Shown: piece by piece, positions 968 through 22,137 of the stretch | Numbering within the stretch: the first letter of the stretch is position 1 | How the letters are laid out: each line of letters begins with the position of its first letter | Notes under the pieces: generated by a model | Seen by the model: the letters and a program-made list of their open reading frames with translations, nothing else | The model's database searches: none | What the model was told of the DNA's origin: nothing | Assembly (NCBI GenBank): GCA_002887195.1 | Contig: PJAB01000681.1 | Span: forward strand, 1-22,137 | Direction of reading: 5' to 3' | Length of the DNA: 22,137 bases | DNA from: Chrysochromulina parva | Lineage: Eukaryota; Haptophyta; Prymnesiales; Chrysochromulinaceae | Program-made: the position numbers and the translations under genes

Positions 968-3900
968 TCAGTATCTGGCGAAACTGCTCGGGCGCGAGAA
1001 GCCCGCCAGCATGCTCGCGAGTAATGGGGTGTCGAAGGTGCCTGCAGGCGCTGCTGCGTGCTTGTCTGGCTGCGTCTTGGCCCACGACGGCGCGCTGCTC
1101 TTGGGCTGCTGGACAGGCCACGGCTGCGTGGGAGGCGCAGCAGCAGCAGCACCTACGAAGGTACCGCCCACCGACTGCGTGGGAGGCGCAGCAGCAGCAG
1201 CACCTACCAAGGTACCGCCCACCGTGTGGCTCAGATTGCATGCAACTCGAGCCTGGTGCAAGATGAGCGGTGAGCGCACACCATCGGACGGCACGAGGCC
1301 GATCTCTTCAGCGAGGAGCGCATGCAGCTCGGTCACCGGATAGCTCCCCCGGTGCAGCCCAGGCGATCCTTGGGCGCGCAGGATGTGCAGGCACAGCTCG
1401 AGCGCATCGGCGAGGGTGCGCTCGGCAAGCTCGTGTGCATCCTGAGGCGCAGCTTGGCCCGCACTGAGGCGCAGCACGTCTGCAGTTTGGACGACGACCG
1501 ACGCGGCCTGCGAAAGCCGCGAGCGGGACGGCTGCTGGCTCCAGCGCCCGACGCGCCACTGCGTCGCGTTCGGCGAGGCGGCCGCATCCGTGGCACAGGC
1601 GAGCAGCACATTCACAGCCTCGGCGAGCTGCGCATCATGAATCAACGCACGACCAGCGCGGCTCGCGAGCAGCGACACCTCCTCGTCTGACTGCAGCACG
1701 CCGTGCATCTTCGAGGGTGAGCCTTGCACCGAGGTCGCGTAATTCGAAGGTGTGCTCACCTTGAGCATCAGGCCCGAGGGGAGCATCAGCAAGCACCCCC
1801 CCACTGGGTAGCGCAGCAGAGCGCTGTCCAGCTGCGCGCGGATCGAGCGGAGCACGGCCTGCAAGCGCTCCGAGACCGACTGGTGGTCGGGCCCATGGCT
1901 GTAGAGCGTCATGGGAGGATGCCACATGCCGAGCGAGGGCACCACGGGCACGCCAAAGCGAGCACCGAGGTGGGCGACGCGAGCGTACGGCATGTACACG
2001 CCGCTCCGTCGGTGTCGCAGGGCAGACAAGATGAGCGTCGCCGCCTCGGGACCGGATGGCCGCGAGGAGGCCGGGCAGAACTCGAAGAGCGGCGTGTAGC
2101 CCGCATCGACAGCGACGGCGGCCAGGCGCACCCAGCGCTGCCCCTCATCGCCCCGAAGGTGCGACTCGGCCTCCATGGCCGCGCTCGTCCGACCGGATCT
2201 CGTGGCGAGATACACGCGCCCCTCAATGACGAAACCCTGCACCATGACGCCGTCGACCTTTTCGAGCATCGGGAGCGCGGGTGCAGCCAGCAGCTCGGAG
2301 AGCTCCCGCTCCGACTGCTCGGGCCGCTGGCCCGCGTGCCAGAACTTGTGGTACGGCCGGCAGAGCACGCGCCGTGTCGGGCGATGGATAGCGAGGCCAC
2401 GCATCTCGTGTCGCATACGCGCCTCTTGCGCGCGCCGAGCGCCGTGCCGAGCGCCGTCGGCGGCGAGGGTCAATGGCGTCGTCGTGGGCTCGAGGCTCGA
2501 GGAGGCTGGCAAAAAGGGGAACTGCGCGGGCGACGCGCGTCCGCGGTAGCAATAGAAGCTGATCTGGGGCGCGCCGCGCACCGAGCACTCCGTGCGCATG
2601 AACCCGATGCGCTGCTCGACGAAGTCGTCCAGGAGCTTGAGCTGTTCGACGGTCAGGACATCGTCGAAGTACTCAAACTCCGTCGCAGGCGCTTCGTTCG
2701 CCGGTCTCATGTTGCCGCCGGCGCCCGTGGAACGCATCGGGGTATGCATCGGGTCGTGGAGCCGCAGCGCCGGAGTGGCCGAAAAGTACTCCTGCTGCTC
2801 CACGGGCGCGAACACGTCGATGTCGTGGAACGGGCCGAGAAGGGGCTGAGGCTGTATGGAGCGCTCGAGCATCCGTCGGCGCTCGAGCTCGCGGCGCGCC
2901 ACAAACCGGCGCGCCCAGCGCGCGAGCACGATCTGCGCGCGCGCCTGCTGCTGCATGATGCTGTGATTGTGCTGCTGCAGCTTGCGAAGGAGCGCCTCGC
3001 GCCCGGCGAGCCGCATGGCGAGTACGCCCTTCGAGAGCATGCTTCGGTTGCGCACGATGATGAGGCTCGCTGTGATGACCGCGGCGGCGGCCTCCCGCTC
3101 GACGCATTGGCGCGCGTGGCGGCCGGCGCGGACGAGATGCGCTTTGGCCCGGCCCCGTTTGCCTCGGGCCCATTTTTGGATCATGATGGCCGCCGGCATG
3201 AGGATCAGCCGCACCCTCCATTCGGCGAGGGACGACAACCAAGCGCCGAAGCCACGCGAGAGGCCGCGATGGATCATGTGCCCGAGGCTCTTGTGCATCG
3301 CCCCAAGTTGGCGCTCGCGCTCCTCGATGCTGGACTGCCACGCCCGCCAAGCCGCCGCCGCGCTCCGATGCGCAAACGAGCCCATGCTCCGATCGAGCAG
3401 CTCCAGCATGCGATAGTGCTCGTCCACCGCCCAGCACCAGCTCGAGAAGCTCTTTCGCTTGCCGCTCTGGCAGAGCGCAGCTAGGCCGCGCCGCGCGAGC
3501 CGTCGGGTGCGCTCGCGCTCCGCGAGCATCCCTATCCACGCGCCCCATGCCCTTGCCTCCCGTCGATAGATCAGCGAACCGATCACACGGCGCATCGCGG
3601 CGCTCCGGGGCGACCTCTTGAAATCCGTTCGGCACTTCCAAGAGTTGAACGCGGGCCCTGTGAACAGGTGAGCGAGTGCTTCTCGCGCTCGCATCCCAGC
3701 GGCCGTCCGAAGCCGTTCGGCATGCTGCGCGCGGCGAGCCAGGTACCCGCGTGCCCCCGCCTGCAGCACCTCGAGCGCCGTACCGAGCTGCTGAATGCCT
3801 TGGACCAGCCGGTTCGCAGGCACCTTGGACTTGCGACGGAGGATCGTCGCCGCCTGCGCATAACCCTCCTGAGAGACGGGCAGCCCGAGCTCAAGTACCG

Positions 3901-4747
3901 TCCGGTGCAGCTGCGCCGCACTCTCCAAGGCGGCCTCGCTGCTCTTGTGGAACGCGCGGCGCACCACGGAGGTCGCGTTCTTGCTCCCGCTCTTTTCGGC
4001 CGATCCTGGCCGGCTCGGTGGCAGGCTCGGTGGCGGGCTGGCGGACTGACTGGCGGACCTGCTGATTTTCGATGCCGCCTTCGGGCGCTCCGGTCTGCCG
4101 TCCTCGTCTCTGCGCAGCGTGGGCAAAGGCGAGTCGCCTCGCTGCTTGCGCGCCCACTGCTGCTCGAGGCGCAAGCGGTACTCCTGCTGCTGCCGGCGCA
4201 AGAGCACCTTGGAGATATCGGCACTCATGTCATTCGTCTCCTCGGCCCTCGGGGAAGACGCCTTTGTAGGGCTCGGCAACATGGCTTGGCTCGGCGCCTT
4301 GGCCGGGCTGGGCGCGTAGGCGATCGCGGAGCTTGGCGTCTTAGCCTGGCTCGGCGCTTTGACTGGACTCGGCGGTTTGGCTGGGCTGGGGGCTTTGGAG
4401 GGCGTCTGAATTCGGCTCATCGTCATCGCTCTCACAGGGCTAGTGGATATGCTCGGGTCCAGCGTCCGCAAGGCCGCTGCCGTGGACGCTGACCAGCGCC
4501 CTCCACTCTCATCCATCGTCCCCAAGGCCGCTGCCGTGGACGCCGACCAGTGCCATCGGACGTCGCCTGCAGCACTGGTCGCGTCCATCGTCCCCAAGGC
4601 CGCTGCCGTGGACGCCGACCAGGGCACCTCATTGCCAGCACGAGGCTGCTTCTGAGGGGTTGTGTACGCCACCGATGAGGAGCTCTTTGCCTCAGGCGAA
4701 GCGCCGCCACTCGCGGTGGGCTTCGGCACGGAGTTGTTTTGGCCCAT
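968..4747 (-). CDS. IQ/AW-repeat protein fused to a T4 Rnl1-like RNA ligase domain
   Basis: A single 1259-codon ORF. It starts MGQNNSVPK, which fits an N-myristoylation signal (Gly2, Ser6). Residues 43-97 hold three W-S-A-S-T-A-A-A-L repeats and 110-168 hold degenerate APSPAK repeats. Residues 330-620 are basic and helical, with IQ-like segments (LQAGARGYLARRA near 328, IMIQKWARGKRGRAK near 521, IVLARWARRFVARRE near 606) and about five units spaced near 33 residues with AWxAW or SW cores (355-513), as in calmodulin- or centrin-binding proteins. Residues about 690-1000 read as an Rnl1-type nucleotidyltransferase: MRGLAIH (782-788), RPYHKFW (797-803), motif I KVDG with candidate nucleophile Lys830, LFEF with Glu889 (motif III), and GLMLKV with Lys996 (motif V). 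The usual motif IV Glu-Gly reads Gly-Gly at 983-984, so activity is uncertain. The C-terminus contains two 17-residue repeats. The family role would be ATP-dependent RNA end joining; the calmodulin link is inference. Confidence 0.75.
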   Translation of the reverse strand: MGQNNSVPKPTASGGASPEAKSSSSVAYTTPQKQPRAGNEVPWSASTAAALGTMDATSAAGDVRWHWSASTAAALGTMDESGGRWSASTAAALRTLDPSISTSPVRAMTMSRIQTPSKAPSPAKPPSPVKAPSQAKTPSSAIAYAPSPAKAPSQAMLPSPTKASSPRAEETNDMSADISKVLLRRQQQEYRLRLEQQWARKQRGDSPLPTLRRDEDGRPERPKAASKISRSASQSASPPPSLPPSRPGSAEKSGSKNATSVVRRAFHKSSEAALESAAQLHRTVLELGLPVSQEGYAQAATILRRKSKVPANRLVQGIQQLGTALEVLQAGARGYLARRAQHAERLRTAAGMRAREALAHLFTGPAFNSWKCRTDFKRSPRSAAMRRVIGSLIYRREARAWGAWIGMLAERERTRRLARRGLAALCQSGKRKSFSSWCWAVDEHYRMLELLDRSMGSFAHRSAAAAWRAWQSSIEERERQLGAMHKSLGHMIHRGLSRGFGAWLSSLAEWRVRLILMPAAIMIQKWARGKRGRAKAHLVRAGRHARQCVEREAAAAVITASLIIVRNRSMLSKGVLAMRLAGREALLRKLQQHNHSIMQQQARAQIVLARWARRFVARRELERRRMLERSIQPQPLLGPFHDIDVFAPVEQQEYFSATPALRLHDPMHTPMRSTGAGGNMRPANEAPATEFEYFDDVLTVEQLKLLDDFVEQRIGFMRTECSVRGAPQISFYCYRGRASPAQFPFLPASSSLEPTTTPLTLAADGARHGARRAQEARMRHEMRGLAIHRPTRRVLCRPYHKFWHAGQRPEQSERELSELLAAPALPMLEKVDGVMVQGFVIEGRVYLATRSGRTSAAMEAESHLRGDEGQRWVRLAAVAVDAGYTPLFEFCPASSRPSGPEAATLILSALRHRRSGVYMPYARVAHLGARFGVPVVPSLGMWHPPMTLYSHGPDHQSVSERLQAVLRSIRAQLDSALLRYPVGGCLLMLPSGLMLKVSTPSNYATSVQGSPSKMHGVLQSDEEVSLLASRAGRALIHDAQLAEAVNVLLACATDAAASPNATQWRVGRWSQQPSRSRLSQAASVVVQTADVLRLSAGQAAPQDAHELAERTLADALELCLHILRAQGSPGLHRGSYPVTELHALLAEEIGLVPSDGVRSPLILHQARVACNLSHTVGGTLVGAAAAAPPTQSVGGTFVGAAAAAPPTQPWPVQQPKSSAPSWAKTQPDKHAAAPAGTFDTPLLASMLAGFSRPSSFARY
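1124..1225 (-). repeat. 51-bp tandem repeat, two copies, coding
   Basis: Two adjacent 51-bp units (1124-1174 and 1175-1225) encode two near-identical 17-residue blocks (VGGTxVGAAAAAPPTQ plus one residue) near the C-terminus of the ligase-fusion protein. The period is a multiple of three, so the frame is kept. The few differences suggest recent duplication. A run of GCT/GCA-type alanine codons makes the unit prone to slippage. Confidence 0.9.
4464..4622 (-). repeat. Three coding repeats near the ligase-fusion N-terminus
   Basis: Three copies of a roughly 33-bp core (starting at 4464, 4518 and 4590) encode WSASTAAALGTMD-type blocks, separated by spacers of different length. The nucleotide sequence of the core is almost invariant. 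This suggests recent duplication or local gene conversion rather than old protein repeats. Confidence 0.85.
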
Positions 4748-4863: not shown

Positions 4864-6382
4864 TCATCCATTGTGGGACAACTGTGGAGTTTCACGCTTC
4901 ACCCTCTCGGCCTGCCGCTGGGCCGCTTGCTCGAACGTCGCGATGAGCCGCTTCGGGCGTCGCGGCGTGTGCCCGAGCGAGCGGCAGGCGCACGGGCCAC
5001 GCGGGCAGCGCTCCGATCGTCGGCGTTGGGTGGCGGCGTGGCAGCGCGCGAGCTCGGTCTCGTCGAGCTTGTGCAGGAGGACGAACTCCGTGTCTTCCTC
5101 GCATACAGTCACCGCATAGTCATCGCGGTTCTTGTGACGGAAATTCGCCGGCCGGTTGAGAGGTGTAGCGCTCCCGTCGAGGACTGCGCCGATGAAGGCA
5201 TCCTCGACTGCCGGCAGGGTGGGCAGTGTGTCGGCCTGACGCACCACGAGCGCTGCCAGATCGGCCGAGAGCGCGTACCCCGCCCCTTGCATATACGGAG
5301 CGTAGACTGTTCGGTTAAAGAGAACGACGTACGCGGGGTCGCGCCACCTCTCGTACTTCGCGTCCTGCTGTGGCGCGGTGATGACCTTGTGGTGAAGGTT
5401 GACGACGCCGACGTAGGCACGCTCACGCGGCAGCGCGCGCAGCAGCTCGAGCAGCCGTGCCGCGCACACGAATGAATCGTCATCGGTCTTGAGCACATAT
5501 TTAAAAGGGAGGTGCACGAGCGCCCAGCGCAGCGCGCCGATCACCTTGTGGAGGATCCGCGTGTAACCATCTCGGGAGTCATCAGGAGTCATCAGGTGTC
5601 ATCAGGAGTCATCAGGAGTCATCAGGGGTCATCAGGGGTCTTCAGGGGTCATCAGGGGTCATCAGGATTCATCAGGAGTCATCAGGAGTCATCAGGGGTC
5701 ATCAGGGGTCATCAGGGGTCATCACCTTGTGGAGGATCTGCGTGTAACCATCGGCCACCGGCAGCACAAGCACGTCGTCATGCCATACGTGCGGGCGACC
5801 CCGGCCGCCACCGACCACAAAGTAGTGACGCACCGCGCACAGTTCCGCAGCGCTCGCCTTCGGGTCACCCAACGAGCCTGCCACGTCGCGCACCCAGCTG
5901 CGCCGGACAGCCTCGCGCCGCCGCGCCGGGCTGAACTGCTTCTGACGGCTCGAGAGCACGAGGATTACGAGGTCGAAGCTGACGTCCGACGCGCTGCTGC
6001 CAAGCGCACCGCCATGCAGGCACTGCGACGTTGGGGTTTCTGGCATGGCCGGTTCATCTTGGGCTGCCTCACCATCGTCCTCACCGTAAGCTGAGGTCTC
6101 GTCCGCGATTCGCAATCCAACCGGGCTGGGCGAGGCACCTGATGCTACTGCAGCCGTGCGATGAAGGGCTGAAGACCCTAGTGGCGATCGAATCGGCAGC
6201 GGCGGCAGCACCAGCGATGGCCGTGGATTTGACGCTGTGGAGATTCCTGGAGCCGGTGTCTGTAGCTTACTGGCATGGAGCGTGGCTTGCGTCAGCGGGA
6301 GGCACGCAAATAGCAACGCAACTCCAAACGCAAGCAGGAACCGCAGCAGCCAAGTGGTCGGCGAGCGAGTTACTGCCGCCAT
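4864..6382 (-). CDS. GT31 beta-1,3-galactosyltransferase-like protein, two exons
   Basis: Exon 1 is 6382-5726 (219 codons) and exon 2 is 5544-4864 (226 codons plus stop), joined in phase 0 to give 445 residues. Residues 11-31 form a signal anchor typical of a type II Golgi protein. The catalytic domain shows FDLVILVLSSR, RREAVRRSW, then across the junction DGYTQILHKV|IGALRW, a DxD-type metal/UDP-sugar site KTDDDSF (Asp240-242), GAGYALS (306-312) and VEDAFIG (332-338). These are the ordered landmarks of the Galactosyl_T (GT31) family, which transfers galactose or GlcNAc from UDP-sugar in the Golgi lumen. The join restores the family spacing between Y-x-x-x-x-x-K and LRW; unspliced, the 181-nt intron shifts the frame. 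The exact donor and acceptor sugars cannot be read. The stop lies 116 bp upstream of the ligase start. Confidence 0.85.
5545..5725 (-). other. Phase-0 GT-AG intron (181 nt) with exon-copy ends
   Basis: Donor CACAAG|GTGATG and acceptor CACAAG|GTGATC (sense orientation). A 32-bp coding segment containing the junction is present at both ends (5540-5571 and 5721-5752, one mismatch), offset by exactly the intron length. The interior is a decamer minisatellite. Splicing is deduced from frame and GT31 family alignment, not from transcript data. Confidence 0.85.
5573..5722 (-). repeat. 10-bp minisatellite filling the GT31 intron
   Basis: About 15 head-to-tail copies of a decamer, TGATGACTCC or TGATGACCCC in the sense strand, with single-base variants. 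It occupies essentially all of the intron between the duplicated exon copies. There are no unique spacers, so it is not a CRISPR array. Copy number is likely to vary between strains. Confidence 0.95.
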
Positions 6383-6548
6383 CTTTCTTCAATGTTAATA
6401 CACGATGTACATCTTTCTTCACACGAGAATTCCTTCACAGCAATCTCGTGTGACCAAGGGCATTGTCACCAATATTCACAGATTATTCACACACTCATCT
6501 CGCCTCAACGCCTCACGAACGTGCAAACCGCCGCACGCGAACCAGAAG
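6383..6548. promoter_or_regulatory. Divergent promoter region, GT31 / selenothioredoxin
   Basis: These 166 bp separate the start codons of two divergently oriented genes and are clearly more AT-rich than the flanking coding DNA. They contain a 9-bp inverted repeat (6419-6427 TCACACGAG, 6445-6453 CTCGTGTGA, 17-bp spacer). A 12-bp direct repeat CATCTTTCTTCA lies at 6380-6391 and 6410-6421, the first copy overlapping the GT31 ATG. No canonical TATA box is evident. Regulatory function is inferred from position only. Confidence 0.4.
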
Positions 6549-6851
6549 ATGACCGTCGTCCAAATTGCTGACAAAGCAGGGCTGCAGGCCCTTTTCGCAA
6601 AGGGCGGCAAGGCTGTCGTGTACCTCTCGGCCACTTGGTGAGGCGGATGCAATCCCGGAAAGTTTTCGCAGACCTTCGGGAGTGACGAATTCGAGGGTCA
6701 AGCGGCGTTTGCGATTGGCGACTGGGACCAACTGAAAGCGCCCGAGTTTTCGACGGGCTACGTGCCCACCATCTTGCTGGTTTCGGATGGCAAGGTCGTC
6801 GAAAAGTTTGCGGGCAACGACTTCAACAAGATCTTGAAATTCCTCGGCTAG
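6549..6851 (+). CDS. Thioredoxin-like selenoprotein, UGA = Sec31 (WUGGC)
   Basis: Reading through TGA at 6639-6641 gives 100 residues to TAG at 6849. The protein begins MTVVQIADKAGLQALF and continues VVYLSATW-U-GGC, then ends with YVPTILLVSDGKVVEKFAG. That is the thioredoxin pattern: the ATW-C-x-x-C active site, a cis-proline V-P-T loop (Pro72) and the closing beta-beta-alpha. The UGA falls exactly on the first, nucleophilic Cys, with Cys34 as the resolving residue. Downstream homology stays in frame with no other defect. A SECIS-like structure follows in the 3' UTR. Likely role: thiol-disulfide or peroxide/repair reduction with a selenol nucleophile. It is slightly shorter than a classic thioredoxin. 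The same frame opens at an earlier ATG (6405), adding 48 residues with no acidic residue that could be a targeting peptide. ATG 6549 is preferred because the extension lies in UTR-like sequence. Confidence 0.88.
6639..6641 (+). other. UGA recoded as selenocysteine
   Basis: The TGA sits between TGG (Trp30) and GGC GGA TGC (Gly-Gly-Cys34). It replaces the first Cys of the thioredoxin C-x-x-C motif. A UGA at a catalytic Cys, intact homology on both sides and a downstream SECIS together indicate Sec rather than termination. Confidence 0.88.
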
Positions 6852-6886
6852 AGTGAAGAAGAACAACGAGATGTACTTCGCCAGGA

Positions 6887-6972
6887 GTGCCGGAACGAAT
6901 CATGATAGCGCCAGCCAACAGGCGGATCACCTCCGTCAGGCGAGGCGTTCTGGAGAACTTCGTTCCGATCAC
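6887..6972 (+). promoter_or_regulatory. SECIS element (type 2) in the selenothioredoxin 3' UTR
   Basis: Helix I is nine perfect pairs, CGGAACGAA (6891-6899) with TTCGTTCCG (6959-6967), plus an outer GTG/CAC. The quartet is ATGA at 6902-6905 facing GGAG at 6952-6955, giving tandem G.A pairs. Helix II pairs 6906-6916 with 6939-6952, with a TT bulge and one A mismatch. The conserved AA is at 6917-6918, eleven nt after ATGA. A six-pair apical helix (6921-6926 with 6932-6937, loop TCACC) places the AA in an internal bulge, as in type 2 SECIS. It lies about 260 nt after the UGA, a workable distance. Folding was done by eye. Confidence 0.85.
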
Positions 6973-7197
6973 TGCATCGCGGATCGCGCTCTCGACGCTT
7001 GGCTTTGACGCCAGGGCACCACAAATAGGCACACCGCGGCACTGTGCTCGGACACAAGCAATGTGCGGAGAGGAAGGCCAAAGTTGACCCTGTGGATGTG
7101 TCTGTCCTGGGGCAATTGGTGCAATCTCTGTAAGTTCAAGCAAAGATGATGTCTGAAAACGCCATAGGCACACGCGGTTATTTGATATTTCTCCACG
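6973..7197 (+). other. Short intergenic region, selenothioredoxin to GT23-like gene
   Basis: About 225 bp after the SECIS and before the next start. It should hold the 3' end of the selenoprotein transcript and the promoter of the following gene. No TATA box, clear poly(A) signal or small RNA was recognised. An in-frame TGA 12 nt before ATG 7198 closes the downstream reading frame. Confidence 0.4.
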
Positions 7198-8760
7198 ATG
7201 AAACCACAAATCCACATCATCCTGCTCACTCGTCACTGCAGCTCACAGTGTGCTCAGAAAGGCCGGAGGCCGGAGCGTCGTCGCGCGCCGAAACATACCG
7301 GTTTTTTACCGGTACCGGTACTGCCTGCGCGTCTCGCGCAACCCATGGTGCGCTACACTGCCAAGGACTTGGCTGCACAGAGTGATCCGAGACGGTTTCA
7401 CGTGCTACCGCCATTTCAGATAGCTGGGACCACGGATGGGGACAGTGCGGCTCTACAACGTGCTTACGCTCACATCGAAGGCGTGCATCGACAAAAGTGC
7501 GTGCTGGGAGTGACGCCATTAGTTGTGCACCGTTTGACAGTTCTTGGCATTGCTAACGATATCAACTACTTGGTGCGCGCGATGGCGATTGCCATGCGTG
7601 CCACAAATGAGGGTCGGCAGCTTCTCTTGCTTCCGCCGGTCCGCACGCCAGAAGGAAAATCGGGCAAGTGGGCTGGCGACCGCTCATCATTGATACGAGG
7701 CCGCACTATGGAGACGGCATGGCATTGGCTAGATGGTTTTCCTGGTGCATCGCATCGCTCCATATTTTGGCCGTCAGCGTGCCAAGAGCTCTTGGAGAGT
7801 AAGTCGGAGCAATGGCGGATGCAGTCTTTGGTCGAGCTGTCCCGCAACAGCTCCGTTGCTCTCGCTGCGGAGCGAGTCGGACTTGGCAAGCGTGTGTTTG
7901 ACACGGAACTTTCGTTGCGAATGCTGGCGAGAGGGATCGCGTACAGCGACGTCCCGGACGCCTTTCGCGACCACGGAGTGCTTTGGTGGTGGCAGGCGCT
8001 GACCACGTACGTCATCCGCGTGCGCGGAGCAATCGCAGAGCGTGTGCGGCAGCATCCAGCCTTGCGCGAAATGTTGAAGGGCATGCGCAAATCTACTTTG
8101 ATGATCGGCGACTCGGCGACTCAGCCCAATTCAACGCGCCTGCAGTATGATTGGCTGGAGCAGAGTCGCCGTGCATTGAGTCTGGCGACGAGGCCAGCCG
8201 GGGATGGGCGCAAGCTCGGGTGGGTGCCCCCGGTAGCATTCGACGCGGGCTTGCATATGCGCATGGGTGATGCCTGTGGGCCCAAGGCAAGGCCGCATCA
8301 AGCAGAGGTGCGAAAGTGCGTCCGCTCGCTGAGACAGGGACTGGAGCCCCTAGTTGCACATTCGGTGCTGCAGCCGGGAGCGCGAGTCTTCTTGGCTACA
8401 GACTCTGCCAGCATTATTGAAGAGGCAGAAGTCATGCGCGCGCAAGTTCAATTTGAAATAGTGTTCCTGCGGCTCAATCGAAGCAAGTACGACACAGAGG
8501 CATGGATCGAGCTCGCAAGTGCTGCAGACCGCTCGCAAGCAGACATCTTGGTAGAGGCACTGCTCGAGCTGCTGCTCCTCTCGCGTGCACGCTTCATTGC
8601 AGGCAGCATGTACGGCAACATGCCGCGCCTGGCTCTGCAACTGCGCACGACCACACCTGGCGATTTTCGACGCCTAGCGTACGTGACGACGGATGGACGC
8701 GACTGGTGCACAAAGCCAACTTGCATCTCCAACAATACGGCCACCGCGCGCTTCTGGTGA
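7198..8760 (+). CDS. Fucosyltransferase-like glycosyltransferase (FUT8/O-FucT fold)
   Basis: A 520-codon ORF. The C-terminal half carries the ordered landmarks of GT-B fucosyltransferases related to FUT8 (GT23) and O-FucTs. NDINYLVRAMAIAMRATNEG (120-139) resembles the N-terminal G-x-x-N/Q helix segment. LHMRMGDAC (352-360) matches the H-x-R-x-x-D GDP-fucose motif. VFLATDSASIIEEA (397-410) is the typical V-[FY]-L-A-T-D block. ALLELLLLSRARFIAGS-MYGNMPRLALQL (454-482) matches the final S/T-rich nucleotide-binding block. Expected reaction: transfer of fucose from GDP-fucose to a glycan or protein in the secretory pathway. The first 49 residues are basic and not family-like; Met50 (7345) is an alternative start, and an unseen 5' exon with a signal anchor is possible. 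Sugar and acceptor are not provable here. Confidence 0.7.
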   Translation: MKPQIHIILLTRHCSSQCAQKGRRPERRRAPKHTGFLPVPVLPARLAQPMVRYTAKDLAAQSDPRRFHVLPPFQIAGTTDGDSAALQRAYAHIEGVHRQKCVLGVTPLVVHRLTVLGIANDINYLVRAMAIAMRATNEGRQLLLLPPVRTPEGKSGKWAGDRSSLIRGRTMETAWHWLDGFPGASHRSIFWPSACQELLESKSEQWRMQSLVELSRNSSVALAAERVGLGKRVFDTELSLRMLARGIAYSDVPDAFRDHGVLWWWQALTTYVIRVRGAIAERVRQHPALREMLKGMRKSTLMIGDSATQPNSTRLQYDWLEQSRRALSLATRPAGDGRKLGWVPPVAFDAGLHMRMGDACGPKARPHQAEVRKCVRSLRQGLEPLVAHSVLQPGARVFLATDSASIIEEAEVMRAQVQFEIVFLRLNRSKYDTEAWIELASAADRSQADILVEALLELLLLSRARFIAGSMYGNMPRLALQLRTTTPGDFRRLAYVTTDGRDWCTKPTCISNNTATARFW

Positions 8761-9612: not shown

Positions 9613-12600
9613 TCACAGCCGAGGCGTATACGGACCCATGAAGGCGCCCATGTTCGAGCTGTACGGGATCGGGGTCGAGGAGGCGTTCGTGTCCATGAAG
9701 TGCTCGAGACCACGCGAGGTCTCGCACAGCTCAGTCTCGACCTTGTCGTTGAGGTCGAGGTTCGCCGCCTTCGAGTAGACAATTTGGAGGTCGCCGAGCA
9801 CGCGCAGCTTGAACCCGACCTCGCAGTAGTGGAAGTAGTACTCCCACTTGCGGATGAAGGCGTCATCAAAGCCGAGCTTCTTGAGCTTCTCCTGATTCGC
9901 CATGAAGTTACGACGCCATTGCGCAAGGGTGGGCACGTAGTGCGGCCCGATATTCTGAACGTGCTCGACGGTCAAGCTCGAGGCGGCGGTGCACGCGGCG
10001 GTGAGCGCGCCAAACGAGGGGCAGCACGCGCCAGGGAAGATGTGCACATTGATGAACTCGGCCGAGTGACGGTAGTCTTCGTAACGGTCGTCTGGGGTCG
10101 TGATCACCTGCACGACAGCGATGCCATGCGGCGCCATCAGCTCGTCCACTGCCTTGTAAAAGTCGGGCAGGTACTCGTGCCCCACGGCCTCGAGCATCTC
10201 GCACGAGACGACGCGGTCGAACGTGCGCCCACCGCTGCTCTCATGGAACGTGCGATAGTCGGTGTAGTGGTACTGGATCAGGTCGCACACGCCCGCTTTG
10301 GCTACACGCATCTCGGCCTCGGCCTTCTGATCATGCGAGAGCGTCAGGCCTACAATCTTGCACCCCACCAACTGTGCGATCCGAATCGAGAGCGCGCCCC
10401 ACCCGAATCCGATCTCGAGGACCGTGTGATGCTTCTCAAGCTTCAGCTTCGAGATGAGCAGGTCGAGCTTGTTCATCTGCGCCTGCTGCAGCGACTCGCC
10501 CTCGTGCTTCCAGTACGCACACGAGTACGACATGTCGTCCGAGAGGAAGGTCTTGAACATGTCGTTTGAGAGATCATAGTGGTTGCCGATGTTGGTCGCC
10601 GTGTTGCCCACCTTGTTGTGCTGGGCCAGGTGCTGCCAGTACGCCATCGCCGAGCCGACGACCGCAGTGCTCATGCCCTGAAAGAGGCGCATCGAGCGAC
10701 CCTGCTTGACGAGCCGATGGCGGTTGAGTGCGAGCACCTGAGAGGACGTGAGGGTTAGGGGTCAAAAGAGGAGAATGAGAGAAGAAATGACCCTAACCCT
10801 GGCGGTTGAGTGCTAGCACCTCGAGAATGTCGCGCATCTCGGGCGTGTCGATGTCGAAGTGGAAGTACGCCTCGGGCAGCCCGAGGTCCGCCCGCAGCGC
10901 GATGCGCCGCCAAAAGTCCTCTCGCTTGACAATGATCGTCGCCTTGTGGGGAGAGGCGGTATCGCCGATGACGATCGTATCGCCATTGGACTCCTTGATT
11001 TTGAGGCAGCCGGACAAGACGAAGGAGCGTAGGAAGGAGAGCACCTGGGCCCGGAGCAGGCCGTTCATCGCGGTCAGCATGTAGCCAGCGCCCGTGGCCA
11101 CCGCGCGAGAGAGCAGTCCCGGTGACGCGACTGCTACCTCCGAGGAATCGGTGACCGCATGCTCGAGCGCCTTGCCGAGCGCCGCGGCCTTGGCGGCGGC
11201 GGCAGCCTTCACAGCAGCGGGCACGCGCACGACCGGCAGCGGGAACTTGCGTGCCGTCGTGTCGCCGAGCGCCTTGAGCAGCATATCAGCGGCGTTGAAC
11301 CCCGCCTGTGTTCCATCCTCATGGAATCCATACCCGAGGTAAGCGCCCGCAAACCAGACGCCGCGCTCGCCCTGAACCGCGGCCGCGTTGGCGGCAGCAT
11401 TGCGCGAGGCCATCGAGGGCACCGGGTGCGACGTGCGCCACGCGGACACGACGTGCTCGGCCGCGGGCGGCTTGGCTGGGTTGAGTGTGACGAAGACGTG
11501 ACCCACGTCCGGATGCTCCAGCTCGAGCTTCTGCAGCTTGTTCAGGTAGTAGGTGACCGCGACGCCACGTGCCTCGTCGGTGCCCAGGAAGTTCCACGCG
11601 GCCCAACACGCCTTGCGCTTGGGCATGAGGGCGGGGTCTTGGTGCAGGTACAGCTGCGACGTCTGGTACGCGAACGCGTCGAGCCACTGCGACTGGGCCG
11701 CGCTCGCCGCGCTCCCCATGATGGTCTTTGCATCTGGCGCATGGCATGCAAAGATGATCTGATCGAAGGTTTCGTCACGGATGGCATCTGGCGTCTTGAT
11801 GGTGAGCTTCCAGCCGCTCGCAAGCTTGCTCACGCCGGTCACCTCCGCGCTCGTCACGATCTTGTTCTTGAAGGCCGCCGTCACCTTGGCGATGTAACCG
11901 TCCGCCGAGCGGCCGCGCACTGTGTACCACTGAGGACGGTTGAAGACCTGGAGCATGTGGTGGTTGGCCATGAACTCGAGGATGAAGTAGGCGGGCGACT
12001 CCGTCACGCGCGCCGCGGGCACCGACCAGATCGACGCGCACGCCGGCACGAGGTACCGCTCGACGAAGTACGTCGAGTAGCGCTTCTCGCGCAGAAAGTC
12101 GCCGAGGCTGACGGAATTCTTGTCGGCGGGCGGCGAGGCGAGGAAGGCCTCGGCATCGGCCTTGAAGGTGGTCATCTCGCGCAACATGCGCAAGAAGGCG
12201 GGCGACGCCATGTTCGTCTTCGTCGCGAACAGCCCGCCCAGGCCCTCTGAGCCCCACTCCCATGCGCCGTCCTCGAGGCTCACCGAGAGCGACATGTCCG
12301 AGGCCTGGATGGCGACGCCCTCGTCCTCGAACCACTTGAGCATGGTCGGGTACGTGACGTGGTTGCACACCATGAAGCCCGTGTCCACGGGCACCTTGCC
12401 CACGTACTGCGTGTGCGCGTGGCCGCCCACGTGCGCGTCCTTTTCGAAGACCTTGATGTCGTGGCCGCTCCGGTGGAGCGCATAGGCCGCGGCGAGGCCT
12501 GAGCAGCCTGAGCCGACGATGGCGACGCGGACGGGATTTTTCGTCTCCGACATTAGGTCACTCTTGGGAGCAGTGGACACGAGGGCGGTGCCGACGGGGC

Positions 12601-12670
12601 CGACAAACAGATCCAAAGAGAAAAGTGCACCCTGGACGCAGGCCGAAGGAGTGGAGATCGAAGACCTCAC
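9613..12670 (-). CDS. FAD amine oxidase-cyclopropane fatty acid synthase fusion
   Basis: Exon 1 is 12670-10820 (617 codons) and exon 2 is 10737-9613 (374 codons plus stop), joined in phase 0 to give about 991 residues. The N-terminal half is an FAD-dependent amine-oxidase-like domain: Rossmann motif VGSGCSGLAAA (52-62), acidic FEKDAHVGGHAHT, and the FAD-closing AGAYLGYGFHEDG block. The C-terminal half is a cyclopropane-fatty-acyl-phospholipid synthase/SAM methyltransferase: GNHYDLSNDMF (668-678), MSYSCAYW, SAM loop VLEIGFGWG (723-731), CEMLEAVGHE, and the EFINVHIFPG block. Plants and algae have the same fusion (CPA-FAS), which adds a methylene from SAM across a phospholipid acyl double bond at membranes; the oxidase part's role is unsettled. 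Met40 (12553, MSETKNPVRVAIVG) is an alternative start that removes a possible targeting extension. It is divergent from a fatty-acid desaturase. Confidence 0.88.
10738..10819 (-). other. Phase-0 GT-AG intron (82 nt) with exon-copy ends
   Basis: Donor CTCGAG|GTGCTA and acceptor CTCTCAG|GTGCTC (sense). The junction segment is duplicated (10718-10739 and 10800-10821, 22 bp, one mismatch), offset by exactly the intron length. The interior has an imperfect inverted repeat built on telomere-like AGGGTTAGGG and CCCTAACCCT (10751-10764 and 10788-10800) around a pyrimidine-rich tract (sense strand). Unspliced, the frame shifts. Splicing is deduced from frame and family continuity. Confidence 0.85.
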
Positions 12671-12874: not shown

Positions 12875-14806
12875 ATGCAGTCCGCGAACGAACTCTCGCT
12901 CCGCAGCAGCGAGGCACTTTCCGTGACGATCTCTTTCGTACGGAGTGCCCGGACTGCGCGCGCGGGCAGCATGTGCCTCGCTAAGGGCCAATCTCATCCT
13001 TCTTGCAAGGCCCTACCTGCACCGAGAGGCGTCGCACGCGGCGCGCTCTTCTGGCAGTGCGGTACCGCAGTGGTCGCCTCGCTCTCTGTCGGTCATGAGC
13101 TGGGTGAGGGGCTGCGACTCCTCTGGCAGACAGGGGCGATCGCGTGCTTGCTGTTTGCGGCGCTCCTGGGCGCACCGGCCTCGTGTGCAATGGCGCGCCG
13201 CCTCGAACGCGCCTTCAAGCGCCGCCGCCTCCTGAGCAGCAGCTGGAGCAGCGCTGGCGGCATGCAGGCCTGCTCCTCATCCGCCTCCGAGCAGCAGCAG
13301 TATGAGTGCGTCACGACCATCCATGGCCGCAAGTACGACCTGAGCGCGTTCGTGTCGAGCCATCCGGGCGGACCGACGGCTCTGCTGCTCACGCACGGCA
13401 CCGATGCCACCGCTCTCTTCGAGTCGTACCATCCGCTCTCGCACCTGCCCGCGGCGGTGCTTGCCAGGTATGAAGTGGGAAATAGCAGCAGCAGCAGCAC
13501 TGGCCACAGCAGCAGGAGCAGCAGCGGTGGCGGTGTCGCCACCAGCGATGTCGCCACCAGCGCTGCCGGCGCGATGGACGGCGAGGCGAGCGACGGCGGC
13601 AGCGGCTCAGACAGCGGAAGTGGCGAGAGTGAAAGTTCCGTGCTTGGCTGGAGGTCGCCGCGGGGGCGCACGGCCGACCCGATGTACGACGTGATGCGCG
13701 AGCGGGTCGCCGCCCTCTTCGAGGCGCGCGGCAAAGGCACCAAGGCGTCGAGCGCCCGGCTCGCGTATTACAGCCTCACGATCGCGCTGTGGGGAACGCT
13801 ATGTCGCGGCTATTACCTCGGCAGCTGGTGCGCGCTTCCGTGGTACGTTCTCTGCGCGTGGCACGTCGCGGGCATCGGGCATGATGCCGCCCACTTCGAG
13901 GTCTCGACCGAGCCTGTCGTGAACGCCGTGCTCGCCTGCTGCATCGGGACCATCTCCAACCCGCTCCATTGGTACTACCAGCACACTGTCGGGCACCACT
14001 CGCACACCAACGACCCCGACAAAGATCCGGACCTGCACCACTACGATCCCTTTTTGCGCGTGCACACGCGCCTCGCGCACCAGCCGTGGCACCGTTGGCA
14101 GCACTACTTCGTCTTCCCCTTCATGGCGCTCTTCACGTTCGGGCAGACGCTCTGGCAGCCGCTCATGCAGCAGGCACTCCCCGGTCAGCCTCGGGCGGTC
14201 AACGGCATCACGCCCATTTTGATGCAGGGCCGCCTGCGCGTGCATGTGCTAGGGTATGGGATGCTCCTCCTGTACGTGTACCTGCACCTCCTCCTCCCCT
14301 TGGCCTTCCACCCGTCACTCCTCTCGGCCGCTGCCTTCTTCTCCATCTTCCTAGGCGGCACCGGTGGCGCCTTTGGCCTCGCTTCCGCCATCAACCACCT
14401 CACGCCCGCCTCGGCCGCCGTAGAGCCCACGCCGCAGAGACTCCCAAGCTCGCCCAACACAAATGGCGCCGGCGCTGGGGGCCGCCTTGGCGGCATCGGC
14501 GGCGGCTCTCGCCAGCTGCAGCAGCACTCGTGGGCAGCGCGTCAGGCTGTCTCGTCCAACAACTTTTGCCTCGGTTCGCCTCTTGCTTTTTGGCTCTCGA
14601 ACGCGCTCAACTACCAAGTCGAGCACCACCTCTTCCCGGGCATCAACCACGAGCATCTGCCCATGATCAGCCCGATCGTGCGCGCCACCTGCACTGAGTT
14701 CGGCGTGCCGTATAACGCCTTCGCGTCTTGGACCGCCATCGCCGACGAGTTTCGGCAGCACCTGCGCAACCTGGGAGACGTGCCGCAGCACGCGAAGCTC
14801 GAGTGA
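12875..14806 (+). CDS. Cytochrome b5-fused front-end fatty acid desaturase
   Basis: A 643-codon ORF with an in-frame TAG immediately before the ATG. A cytochrome b5 domain at about 143-202 has the heme-binding HPGG (163-166) and a second axial His in SYHPLSH. The desaturase domain has three His boxes binding the di-iron centre: HDAAH (336-340), HTVGHH (370-375) and QVEHH (581-585), the Gln in box 3 being the mark of front-end desaturases. Hydrophobic spans flank the boxes, and the protein should sit in ER or plastid membrane. Reaction: O2- and electron-dependent insertion of a double bond between an existing one and the carboxyl end, as in PUFA synthesis; delta-4, -5, -6 or -8 specificity cannot be told. 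Low-complexity Ser/Gly inserts lie at 203-256 (after b5) and 511-550 (before box 3). Met33 is a possible later start. Confidence 0.9.
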   Translation: MQSANELSLRSSEALSVTISFVRSARTARAGSMCLAKGQSHPSCKALPAPRGVARGALFWQCGTAVVASLSVGHELGEGLRLLWQTGAIACLLFAALLGAPASCAMARRLERAFKRRRLLSSSWSSAGGMQACSSSASEQQQYECVTTIHGRKYDLSAFVSSHPGGPTALLLTHGTDATALFESYHPLSHLPAAVLARYEVGNSSSSSTGHSSRSSSGGGVATSDVATSAAGAMDGEASDGGSGSDSGSGESESSVLGWRSPRGRTADPMYDVMRERVAALFEARGKGTKASSARLAYYSLTIALWGTLCRGYYLGSWCALPWYVLCAWHVAGIGHDAAHFEVSTEPVVNAVLACCIGTISNPLHWYYQHTVGHHSHTNDPDKDPDLHHYDPFLRVHTRLAHQPWHRWQHYFVFPFMALFTFGQTLWQPLMQQALPGQPRAVNGITPILMQGRLRVHVLGYGMLLLYVYLHLLLPLAFHPSLLSAAAFFSIFLGGTGGAFGLASAINHLTPASAAVEPTPQRLPSSPNTNGAGAGGRLGGIGGGSRQLQQHSWAARQAVSSNNFCLGSPLAFWLSNALNYQVEHHLFPGINHEHLPMISPIVRATCTEFGVPYNAFASWTAIADEFRQHLRNLGDVPQHAKLE

Positions 14807-19900: not shown

Positions 19901-22137
19901 GGGAGGTGGGCTTGGTGGTGGTGGCAGTGGTGGAGGTGAAGGAGGTGGCGACAATGGGGGTGGCGAGGGCGGAGGTCGATATGGCGGTGATGAAGGCGGT
20001 GGTGGAGATGGTGGCGCCGAGGGAGGAGGAGGCAATGGTATCGGTGATGGAGGAGGTGGAGAGGGTGGAGGCGAAGGCGGCGGCGGAGCGGGTGGCGGTG
20101 AGGGCGGCGGAGGTGAGGGCGGTGGTGAAGGCGGGGGAGGCGAGGGCGGCGGTGATGGGGGAGGAGGCGATGGCGGTGGCGAGGGCGGCGGCGGCGATGG
20201 TGGAGGCGATGGCGGAGGCGGCGACGGTGGCTGGCTCGGTGGCGGAGGTGAGGACGGAGGTGGGCTTGGCGGTGGCGGGCATGGCGGCGGCGACGGCGGA
20301 GGAGGCGATGGCGGCGGTGAGGGTGGAGGCGGTGATGGCGGAGGTGGTGAGGGAGGCGGCGGTGAGGGAGGCGGCGATGGTGGCGGCGGCGATGGCGGCG
20401 GCGAAGGATGAGGTGGCGATGGAGGTGGCGATGGTGGAGGGGGCGATGGGGGTGGCGGAGAAGGCGGAGGCGGCATTGGAGGCGGGCTGGGAGGTGGCGG
20501 TGAGGGCGGTGGCGACGGTGGCGGGGGAGAAGGTGGAGGCGACGGCGGCGGCGGCGATGGTGGCGGGGAGGGCGGCGGAGGTAGAGGCGGGGGAGACGGG
20601 GGTGGCGGTGAAGGTGGCACTGAGGGTGGGGGAGGCGAAGGGGGCGGTGAGGGTGGGGGCGGTGAAGGCGGTGGCGACGGAGGTGGAGGCGATGGAGGTG
20701 GGCTTGGCGGTGGCGGGCATGGCGGCGGCGACGGCGGAGGAGGCGATGGCGGCGGTGAAGGTGGAGGCGGTGATGGCGGAGGTGGTGATGGGGGTGGTGA
20801 TGGAGGTGGTGGCGAGGGCGGTGGGGGCCGAGGCGGAGGTGATGGTGGTGGAGGCGATGGCGGGGGAGAAGGGGGTGGCGGGCGGGGAGGTGGCGATGGC
20901 GGCGGGGAGGGCGGCGGCGGCGAGGGCGGGGGCGAGGGAGGTGGAGGTGATGGAGGTGGCGAGGGAGGCGGGGGCGAGGGAGGTGGGGACGGCGGAGGAG
21001 GAGACGGAGGCGGCGACGGGGGGGGCGATGGAGGTGGAGAGGGCGGCGGCGAAGGTGGCGGTGGCGATGGCGGTGGGGACGGGGGAGGTGGAGAAGGCGG
21101 TGGCGATGGAGGTGGAGGAGACGGAGGTGGTGGCGAGGGCGGTGGGGGCGAGGGTGGCGGCGACGGAGGCGGCGGTGATGGTGGTGGAGACGGCGGCGGC
21201 GGCGATGGTGGTGGAGACGGCGGCGGCAGCGATGGTGGTGGACTTGGAGGCGGCGGCAACGGAGGCGGGGAGGGTGGAGGAGGTGAAGGCGGCGGCGAAG
21301 GAGGGGGCGGTGAGGGTGGAGGCGAGGGTGGGGGCGGCGAGGGTGGAGGTGACGGTGGCGGTGGTGATGGAGGTGGCGATGGGGGAGGCGGCGAGGGCGG
21401 CGGTGAGGGCGGTGGTGGTGACGGAGGCGGAGAAGGCGGTGGTGGTGACGGCGGCGGCGAGGGCGGCGGAGGAGATGGAGGTGGTGATGGTGGTGGGGGG
21501 GAAGGTGGTGGTGAGGGCGGCGGAGGCGAGGGTGGCGGGCTGGGCGGAGGTGGTGAGGGTGGCGGTGAGGGAGGTGGGGGCAATGGCGGAGGCGACGGTG
21601 GAGGCGGTGACGGCGGGGGCGACGGTGGTGGCGGAGAGGGTGGGGGCGATGGCGGGGGCGGCGAGGGTGGTGGTGAGGGAGGCGGTGGGAATGGCGGTGG
21701 CGATGGAGGCGGCGGCGAGGGTGGCGGGGAAGGTGGCGGCGGGGAGGGCGGCGGGGAGGGCGGGGGTGGAGACGGAGGCGGTGAAGGTGGTGGTGGCAGT
21801 GGCGGCGGCGACGGGGGAGGTGGAGAAGGCGGTGGAGACGGTGGCGGTGGAGACGGAGGAGGTGGCGACGGCGGCGGCGGTGAGGGCGGTGGCGAGGGCG
21901 GTGGGGGTGAGGGAGGCGGCGACGGAGGGGGCGACGATGGAGGGGGCGATGGCGGAGGTGGACATGGCGGTGGTGAGGGCGGCGGTGGCGACGGTGGCGG
22001 CGAGGGAGGAGGCGGCAAGGGCGGCGGCGAGGGAGGCGGCGGCGATGGTGGCGGGGAGGGAGGCGGCGGCAGCGGCGGTGGTGAGGGCGGCGGAGGCGAG
22101 GGCGGTGGTGAGGGCGGCGGTGGTGAGGGTGGCGGCG
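17000..22137 (-). CDS. Ser-Pro-rich wall-type receptor-like protein with FHA domain (5' partial)
   Basis: Open to the right edge. Exon 1 (22137-19625) encodes about 800 residues of SPPPxPPPP repeats, then DGSIQFIVAKAVAS and a short charged stretch. Exon 2 (19552-17000) has 850 codons. The ectodomain continues with MGHEHGHEHAPVSADYITTM and a SEA-like beta/alpha stretch. A single membrane span GGIIAGIVIAVLCLVSACIF follows (exon-2 residues about 114-136), then CRRKRK. The cytoplasmic part has ALQxFLN-type segments reminiscent of peptidoglycan-binding folds (about 380-470) and an FHA-like domain (about 532-616; LGRQ, MLSREQVIFTF). FHA domains bind phosphothreonine. Next come 25-residue repeats and a Pro-rich tail. 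Such Hyp-rich ectodomains belong to extensin/pherophorin-like wall glycoproteins. Exon 2 has no ATG before its 13th codon, supporting the join. Two separate genes remain possible. Confidence 0.7.
17441..17635 (-). repeat. 75-bp tandem repeat, 2.6 copies, coding
   Basis: Units start at 17441, 17516 and (partial) 17591 and are nearly identical. In the FHA gene frame they encode SGEAQASRTASSSRSGMGCS plus SCTCT (25 residues). Each unit has an internal hairpin, GGGAGGC/GCCTCCC. In another frame the same DNA would read LGYGMLLLHVYF, matching the desaturase gene at nucleotide level (see findings). Confidence 0.9.
19553..19624 (-). other. Probable phase-0 GC-AG intron (72 nt)
   Basis: Donor GAGCAG|GCGAGT and acceptor GAGCAG|GCCGTG (sense). 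A 17-bp segment GTGGCTCTCGAGCAGGC occurs at both ends (19551-19567 and 19623-19639), offset by exactly 72 nt. The intron is a multiple of three but has two in-frame TGAs. Its interior has three copies of an 11-bp TGATTGACTC-type unit, similar to the decamer in the GT31 intron. A GC donor is non-canonical, and no GT donor keeps the frame. Confidence 0.6.
19735..22137 (-). repeat. SPPPxPPPP coding repeat array
   Basis: At least 2.4 kb encoding alternating S-P3 and S-P4 blocks, with no other content and no frame break, continuing past the window edge. Third codon positions vary widely between units while the peptide hardly changes. The plus strand is almost pure G with scattered A/C/T (GGNGGNGAN). 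The likely product is a hydroxyproline-rich rod modified by prolyl hydroxylation and O-glycosylation. Confidence 0.95.

What the first reader, a model, noticed from the sequence alone, without database searches (positions are those of the whole stretch)
6549..6972. Selenothioredoxin with UGGC active site and its own SECIS
An in-frame TGA falls on the nucleophilic Cys of a thioredoxin active site (ATW-U-GGC), followed by intact thioredoxin sequence including the cis-Pro VPT loop. A foldable type 2 SECIS lies about 260 nt downstream. A standard gene finder would truncate this gene to 30 codons or miss it. Sec at the attacking position, with Gly-Gly where thioredoxins usually have Gly-Pro, suggests a distinct redox partner or substrate. 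Whether this subfamily is already described I cannot tell.
Basis: partly seen in the sequence, partly recalled or inferred. Interest (0 to 1): 0.9.

Follow-up and report, generated by a model that had tools for sequence, protein, structure and literature searches.

The report
Selenium-dependent thioredoxin of probable haptophyte algae
A small thioredoxin-like gene in a probable alga has a stop codon exactly where thioredoxins keep their key reactive cysteine, and this codon is predicted to be read as selenocysteine with the help of an RNA hairpin just past the gene; it matters because the relatives found in public data are held only as fragments, so the family is easily overlooked.

Summary
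ORF 6549-6851 is a 100-codon thioredoxin domain (PF00085) with an in-frame TGA at the first active-site Cys (W-TGA-GGC). A SECIS-type hairpin lies at 6889-6970. A second copy in the same genome (C600, 71% identity) has the TGA at the same codon. Selection on protein is equal before and after it (dN/dS 0.18 and 0.175). The hairpin is conserved between the copies (75%, z 10.3); from 20 bases past it the DNA is at chance. The genome has tRNA-Sec(UCA), SepSecS and part of a PSTK; TGA ends 4 of 5 other Pfam-bearing ORFs of the window. Of 50 protein hits I count 43 as family: none full-length, 12 ending exactly at the Trp before the TGA, none showing Cys there. So this is very likely a selenoprotein of a thioredoxin family for which I found no Cys form, with a soluble and a membrane-anchored version, probably from haptophytes (one named relative, Prymnesium polylepis). 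Thioredoxin-fold selenoproteins of algae are in print, so this is a new variant, not a new kind. Open: no Rfam SECIS match, no selD found, weak eEFSec, no transcript or selenium data.

The parts
6549..6851 (+). Coding sequence of the thioredoxin-like protein, 100 aa with TGA read as Sec, stop TAG
   Evidence: PF00085 28 bits; paralog 71% identical with TGA at the same codon; dN/dS 0.18 over codons 3-30 and 0.175 over codons 32-100
6549..6551 (+). Likely start codon
   Evidence: Public pieces P0007-P0010 share residues 1-30 but their upstream residues differ; P0007's upstream text matches another frame of the window. An upstream in-frame ATG exists at 6405
6639..6641 (+). TGA predicted to encode selenocysteine 31, at the attacking Cys position of the UGGC motif
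   Evidence: TGA also in the paralog; 12 of 43 family pieces end exactly at Trp30; the codon after Trp30 was seen only in the window and on C600
6648..6650 (+). TGC, Cys34, predicted resolving Cys
   Evidence: translation; conserved in the paralog and in P0020 and P0021
6765..6767 (+). Pro73, at the position of the cis-Pro of thioredoxins (role recalled), in the STGYVPT loop
   Evidence: STGYVPT in 26 of 31 C-terminal family pieces, 2 variants, 3 pieces too short; P73 and T74 nearly invariant in 23 aligned sequences
6889..6970 (+). SECIS-like hairpin: 9-bp helix I (6891-6899 with 6959-6967), ATGA at 6902-6905 facing GGAG, helix II, AA in the internal loop, small apical hairpin (type 2 layout)
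   Evidence: fold z -3.21, paralog z -1.69; best of both strands of the window in my motif-plus-helix scan; 75% identical to paralog, z 10.3, against z -0.3 and -0.9 for the stretches from 20 bases past it

Best explanation
Window 6549-6851 is a thioredoxin-domain gene with an in-frame TGA at the attacking-cysteine codon and, 37 bases past its stop codon, a hairpin conserved in a second gene copy, and the TGA is predicted to be read as selenocysteine with that hairpin likely acting as the SECIS, which would give a small thioredoxin-like enzyme. Steps inferred: SECIS-binding protein and eEFSec bring Sec-tRNA(UCA) to the UGA; Sec31 attacks a disulfide or oxidised substrate; Cys34 resolves the mixed selenosulfide; a reductase then reduces the Sec-Cys bond. 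The copy in the window has no N-terminal extension and probably works in the cytosol; the C600 copy, with a hydrophobic N-terminus, is probably membrane-anchored. The substrate is unknown; a fast disulfide or peroxide-linked reductant role is the most likely guess.
For: Paralog with TGA at the same codon. Equal purifying selection on both sides of the TGA; after it the changes fall 12, 6 and 30 at codon positions 1, 2 and 3. Hairpin conserved against chance-level DNA from 20 bases past it, with one A-U to C-G double change in helix I. tRNA-Sec 70.7 bits, over cut-off, anticodon TCA; SepSecS E 1.9e-124; partial PSTK. TGA ends 4 of the 5 other Pfam-bearing ORFs of the nine proteins scanned in the window, and the SepSecS ORF, so it is not reassigned. 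Of 70 thioredoxin-domain matches in the genome, 6 hold a TGA, in all 6 at the first active-site Cys. 43 family proteins among 50 hits: none full-length, 12 ending at Trp30, 0 with Cys31. The model of the Cys form (best of five, mean pLDDT 73) matches human thioredoxin 2 first among solved structures (TM 0.63).
Against: Rfam has no SECIS match at the hairpin; SECIS_1 also gives none in the genome, where that search rang in no control either, and none in the loci of five TGA-bearing PDI genes. Fold energy alone is fifth best of 87 sliding windows, and 13 of 200 shuffles fold at least as well as the paralog's hairpin. My scan's allowed AA distance was widened by one base after it had missed the paralog, and one place in the background loci outscored the hairpin (L022). 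selD was not found (the one AIRS match looks like purM); eEFSec is weak, 25 against 27 bits; PSTK is far below its cut-off. The machinery models are not fully specific: tRNA-Sec passes its cut-off in 5 of 14 control genomes and SepSecS in 3 of 14, Bacillus subtilis among them. P0011 aligns Ser and Gly at the two active-site positions. Neither this gene nor C600 is among the 70 matches. No transcript, protein or selenium data.
Confidence: 0.9

Rival explanations
1. Pseudogene or assembly error: a once Cys-coding thioredoxin gained a TGA by mutation or miscall.
For: A Cys codon TGC or TGT is one change from TGA; the genome is a draft of 2199 contigs.
Against: The same TGA is in a paralog at dS about 0.9 to 1.2, and dN/dS is 0.175 after it. 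Database pieces from other contigs, some perhaps of the same species, stop at the same Trp.
Confidence: 0.02
2. Stop read-through inserting an ordinary amino acid, or TGA reassigned genome-wide, so that no selenium is involved.
For: No call shows the amino acid; selD was not found.
Against: TGA ends 4 of 5 other Pfam-bearing ORFs; tRNA-Sec and SepSecS are present; the TGA lies at the first active-site Cys in 8 of 8 TGA-bearing thioredoxin domains seen, six plus the two copies here; the hairpin is conserved.
Confidence: 0.04
3. The truncated 30-residue product, or two separate proteins, is the real gene product and the TGA is a true stop.
For: Public gene calls hold such halves.
Against: Both halves are under equal selection in one frame and together make one thioredoxin domain; half a thioredoxin fold is not expected to be stable (general knowledge).
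Confidence: 0.03

Closest known systems
Thioredoxin-fold selenoprotein of Ostreococcus tauri, O. lucimarinus and Thalassiosira pseudonana (Lobanov 2007, PMC2375036, passages seen)
   Same: Eukaryotic, unicellular algae, thioredoxin fold, Sec
   Different: Described there as a homolog of bacterial selenoproteins; my scans, with two short peptide patterns each, confirmed no relative in viral or prokaryote contigs.
Selenoprotein PDI of haptophytes, EhSEP2 / PDI_a (PMC6254913 passages; PMC7539508 sections and passages)
   Same: Single thioredoxin domain with Sec at the first active-site position; five UGHC genes of this kind in this genome
   Different: UGHC in a longer protein with a hydrophobic N-terminus and a C-terminal extension; here UGGC in 100 aa
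Algal TlpA and PDI_b-d selenoproteins (PMC7539508)
   Same: Thioredoxin-like domain with Sec
   Different: Their motifs are in supplements I could not read; overlap with this family cannot be excluded
Bacterial selenocysteine thioredoxin and Trx-like 1-3 (UxxC) of the ocean survey (PMC2398784, passages seen)
   Same: UxxC in a thioredoxin fold
   Different: Bacterial SECIS elements lie just after the TGA, inside the gene (recalled in part); here a eukaryotic-type hairpin lies past the stop codon
Classical thioredoxin (TIGR01068, PF00085)
   Same: Fold, Trp before the active site, Pro of the cis-Pro loop, Gly near the end
   Different: Sec for the attacking Cys, Gly-Gly for Gly-Pro, and Tyr where a thioredoxin Asp aligns (that this is the buried Asp26 of E. 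coli thioredoxin is recalled)

Membership tests
Eukaryotic selenoprotein gene | In-frame TGA at a position held by Cys in relatives | tested here: met
   Cys at residue 31 in 6 of the 7 ordinary thioredoxins among the 50 hits
Eukaryotic selenoprotein gene | Coding constraint continues after the TGA | tested here: met
   dN/dS 0.175 over codons 32-100
Eukaryotic selenoprotein gene | SECIS-type hairpin with ATGA/GA core and AA in the 3' region | tested here: met
   own motif-plus-helix scan and paralog conservation
Eukaryotic selenoprotein gene | SECIS recognised by a covariance model | tested here: inconclusive
   Rfam gives none; SECIS_1 gives none in the whole genome, without a positive control; SECISearch3 not available
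Eukaryotic selenoprotein gene | Sec machinery in the genome | tested here: inconclusive
   tRNA-Sec and SepSecS found over cut-off, PSTK below it; selD not found, eEFSec just below cut-off; SBP2 not searched
Eukaryotic selenoprotein gene | Selenium shown in the protein | not testable with these tools
   needs 75Se or mass spectrometry
Pfam Thioredoxin PF00085 | Score over the curated cut-off | tested here: met
   28 against 23.5 bits
Pfam Thioredoxin PF00085 | Thioredoxin fold | tested here: met
   best of five models mean pLDDT 73 (others 65, 64, 52, 48); first PDB match human thioredoxin 2, TM 0.63; TM 0.49-0.64 over the 50 rows shown
Classical thioredoxin (NCBIfam TIGR01068) | Score over the equivalog cut-off | tested here: not met
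   23.4 against 96.8 bits; so it is not filed as a classical thioredoxin
Classical thioredoxin (NCBIfam TIGR01068) | WCGPC active site and buried Asp | tested here: not met
   WUGGC and Tyr25
Selenoprotein PDI (PDI_a) | UGHC motif | tested here: not met
   UGGC here; UGHC in C278, C152, C76 (two) and C1204
Thioredoxin-fold selenoprotein of Lobanov 2007 | Sequence homology to the Ostreococcus protein | not testable with these tools
   its sequence is in no text that I could read

The most novel reading that the evidence does not exclude
A selenium-obligate thioredoxin family of marine algae, probably haptophytes: every member uses Sec as the attacking residue in a UGGC site without the buried acid of ordinary thioredoxins, no Cys form survives, and soluble and membrane-anchored versions run side by side, so thiol redox in these algae depends directly on selenium supply. 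Gene callers have left it in fragments, so it has gone unnamed.
Probability: 0.5. Interest if true: 0.65.

Novelty: new variant of a known kind. Interest (0 to 1): 0.5.

Why it matters
Thioredoxin is usually the cysteine-based partner of a selenium-bearing reductase. A thioredoxin that carries selenium itself, with no cysteine version among the 43 relatives found, would tie a basic redox carrier of marine algae to dissolved selenium. It also gives a natural comparison for why evolution keeps selenium at the attacking position, and a clear case of genes split by standard annotation.

Tried and rejected
The first hairpin I folded (7090-7220) was not special (z 0.08); the right one is 6889-6970. 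Rfam gave no SECIS. Scans for relatives gave 89 pattern matches in viral contigs and 70 in prokaryote contigs, 0 confirmed by tblastn. Each scan used only two peptide patterns, one of them holding the Cys, which a TGA gene cannot match. An exact DNA pattern in viral contigs gave 0. A joint alignment of five SECIS elements was poor (52% column identity), and I built no covariance model. In one search SECIS-like hairpins of the usual layout were clear, by my eye, in 3 of 5 PDI genes (C278, C152, C76 near 16 kb) and weak in the other 2 (C76 near 41 kb, C1204).

My hairpin scan was written after I had seen the hairpin. With AA allowed 9-14 nt after the ATGA it missed the paralog; I widened it to 15.

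I considered that loss of the buried acid six residues before the active site goes with selenium. Acid was in 0 of 8 Sec domains (three, five read by eye). For Cys domains I hand-counted 24 of 48: rows with a motif, plus L007, L013 and L016. Dropped: 14 loci without a motif and L081, whose motif was misplaced. Fisher p 0.008, but the 8 fall into about three families, so I treat it as weak. The first 20 loci alone had looked stronger.

Paper searches used: all 10, seen as listings; four papers opened as passages or sections. 'selenothioredoxin' gave 0 papers; 'Prymnesium' with 'selenoprotein' gave 1, off topic by its listing. I did not search for the word UGGC. Supplements could not be read.

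Full report
Observation. The ORF at 6549-6851 carries an in-frame TGA at 6639-6641 and ends at TAG. Read with TGA as a residue it is MTVVQIADKAGLQALFAKGGKAVVYLSATWUGGCNPGKFSQTFGSDEFEGQAAFAIGDWDQLKAPEFSTGYVPTILLVSDGKVVEKFAGNDFNKILKFLG. It passes the Pfam Thioredoxin cut-off (28 against 23.5 bits) but not the NCBIfam thioredoxin equivalog cut-off (23.4 against 96.8).

Second copy. The window is contig C681 of a 45 Mb genome in 2199 contigs that has no relatives in the collection. The same genome holds a second copy on C600, 71% identical, with TGA at the same codon and stop TAG. The motif TGGTGAGGNGGNTGYRAYCC occurs twice in the genome, at these two genes, and its reversed control 0 times. dN/dS between the copies is 0.18 over codons 3-30 and 0.175 over codons 32-100. 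After the TGA the changes fall 12, 6 and 30 at codon positions 1, 2 and 3. The sequence after the TGA is therefore selected as protein.

Hairpin. At 6889-6970, 37 bases after the stop codon, lies a hairpin with a 9-bp basal helix, ATGA facing GGAG, a second helix, AA in an internal loop and a small apical hairpin. Its fold z is -3.21 against 200 shuffles; the paralog's is -1.69. By a rougher shuffle, fold energy alone ranks it only fifth of 87 sliding windows. My scan for core motif plus helices puts it first on both strands of the whole window. In the background loci (189,332 strand-bases, some loci overlapping) one place scored better, L022. The paralog's hairpin entered only after I widened the AA distance to 15. 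Between the copies the hairpin is 75% identical (z 10.3) and the 37 bases before it 65% (z 3.6), while two 100-base stretches starting 20 bases past it are at chance (z -0.3 and -0.9). One helix I pair changes on both sides, A-U to C-G. Rfam gives no SECIS match. SECIS_1 also gives none in the whole genome, where it rang in no control genome, and none in the loci of five other TGA-bearing genes, so this says little.

Sec machinery and code. tRNA-Sec scores 70.7 bits with anticodon TCA; SepSecS has E 1.9e-124. Both models also pass their cut-offs in some of 14 control genomes (5 and 3). PSTK is partial and below cut-off. eEFSec is weak, 25 against 27 bits. selD was not found; the single AIRS match resembles purM. 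SBP2 was not searched. The genome may be incomplete or the genes split by introns. TGA ends 4 of the 5 other Pfam-bearing ORFs of the window, so it is not reassigned. Of 70 thioredoxin-domain matches in the genome, a lower bound that does not include the two copies here, 6 contain a TGA. In all 6 it is at the first active-site position: five UGHC and one UGYC.

Family. Three searches against 5.8 billion proteins gave 10, 17 and 50 hits at E up to 0.001, 0.01 and 0.1. Of the 50 I count 43 as family members by alignment and motif; the two weakest, P0043 and P0050, have E 0.0084 and 0.044. The other 7 are ordinary thioredoxins, 6 with Cys at residue 31 and one with Ser. Of the 43, 12 end exactly at Trp30 (one is the window's own), 28 begin after residue 31, and 3 overlap column 31 with Ser, Ser or Leu (P0002, P0011, P0020). 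None is full-length and none has Cys31. I did not see the DNA of these pieces, so the codon after Trp30 is known only in the window and on C600. I read the three overlaps as intron or false-start sequence (inferred; P0020 and P0021 run into GCDPxKF at the same place). P0011, which also has Gly for Cys34, could instead be a member without the active site. STGYVPT is kept in 26 of 31 C-terminal pieces; 2 have variants and 3 are too short. The search finds only relatives that share five-residue words and have a similar length, so 'no Cys form' means none found this way.

Two forms. The window copy likely starts at MTVVQ: database pieces P0007-P0010 agree from there, while upstream they differ, one matching another frame of the window. 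The C600 copy begins MSMVIIGGVIAAGALASMLFCGRR, with mean hydropathy over 2 in its first 19-residue windows; P0013-P0017, P0043 and P0050 carry this kind of stretch. A soluble and a membrane-anchored form are therefore predicted.

Structure. AlphaFold2 models of the Cys form from 23 sequences have mean pLDDT 73 for the best and 65, 64, 52 and 48 for the others. The best model's first PDB match is human thioredoxin 2 (TM 0.63, 30% identity). By alignment Sec31 is the attacking residue, Cys34 the resolving one and Pro73 the cis-Pro (roles recalled from thioredoxins). Tyr25 aligns with an Asp of ordinary thioredoxins. An acid there is seen in 0 of 8 Sec and 24 of 48 Cys domains of the genome (partly counted by hand), a weak and family-confounded trend.

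Origin. The only named relative is P0002 from Prymnesium polylepis, a haptophyte (group recalled). Haptophyte origin is likely but not shown.

Literature. Algal thioredoxin-fold selenoproteins are in print for Ostreococcus and Thalassiosira (PMC2375036, passages). The algal survey (PMC7539508, sections 5, 7, 22 and passages) reports 42 families; its abbreviation list has PDI, TlpA ('thioredoxin-like protein'), DsbA, GRX, PRX, PITH and others, but no plain thioredoxin. Its PDI_b-d motifs are in supplements I could not read. Haptophyte UGHC PDI is in print (PMC6254913, passages). Bacterial UxxC thioredoxins are in print (PMC2398784, passages). Nothing that I saw in the listings of my 10 searches, or in the passages of these four papers, names this UGGC family; the word UGGC itself was not searched.

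Verdict. The gene-level and genome-level tests that could tell point to a real selenoprotein gene; selD and a covariance-model SECIS remain open. It is a new variant of a known kind; the function beyond predicted thiol-disulfide exchange is unknown.

Noticed in passing
L026 (C278), L027 (C152), L028 and L029 (C76), L030 (C1204): Five PDI-type genes with TGA in W-U-GHC, ending in TAA or TAG; clear SECIS-like hairpins, by eye, in three of the five.
   Followed up: partly
L031 (C460) and L073 (C104): A PDI-like pair in one genome, one with TGA (CRQS-U-GYC), one with Cys (CRPSCGFC): a natural Sec/Cys comparison.
   Followed up: no
P0020, 114 aa: This family member ends in GGCIIA, which resembles a CaaX prenylation box (motif recalled), hinting at another way to reach membranes.
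   Followed up: no
window 20001-22000: GC about 76% with GC skew about 0.66 and long open frames on both strands; probably a G-rich low-complexity tract.
   Followed up: no
window 5630-5729, - strand: Repeats of about CCTGATGAC give weak, likely false snoRNA matches below the gathering score.
   Followed up: no
window 968-4747 (-), 9613-10737 (-), 10793-12670 (-), 12875-14806 (+): Neighbours by Pfam: RNA ligase domain protein, cyclopropane synthase type methyltransferase, flavin amine oxidase, cytochrome b5 fused desaturase.
   Followed up: no
genome G000: No selD found, though tRNA-Sec and SepSecS are present; a missing contig, introns or a divergent gene may explain it.
   Followed up: partly
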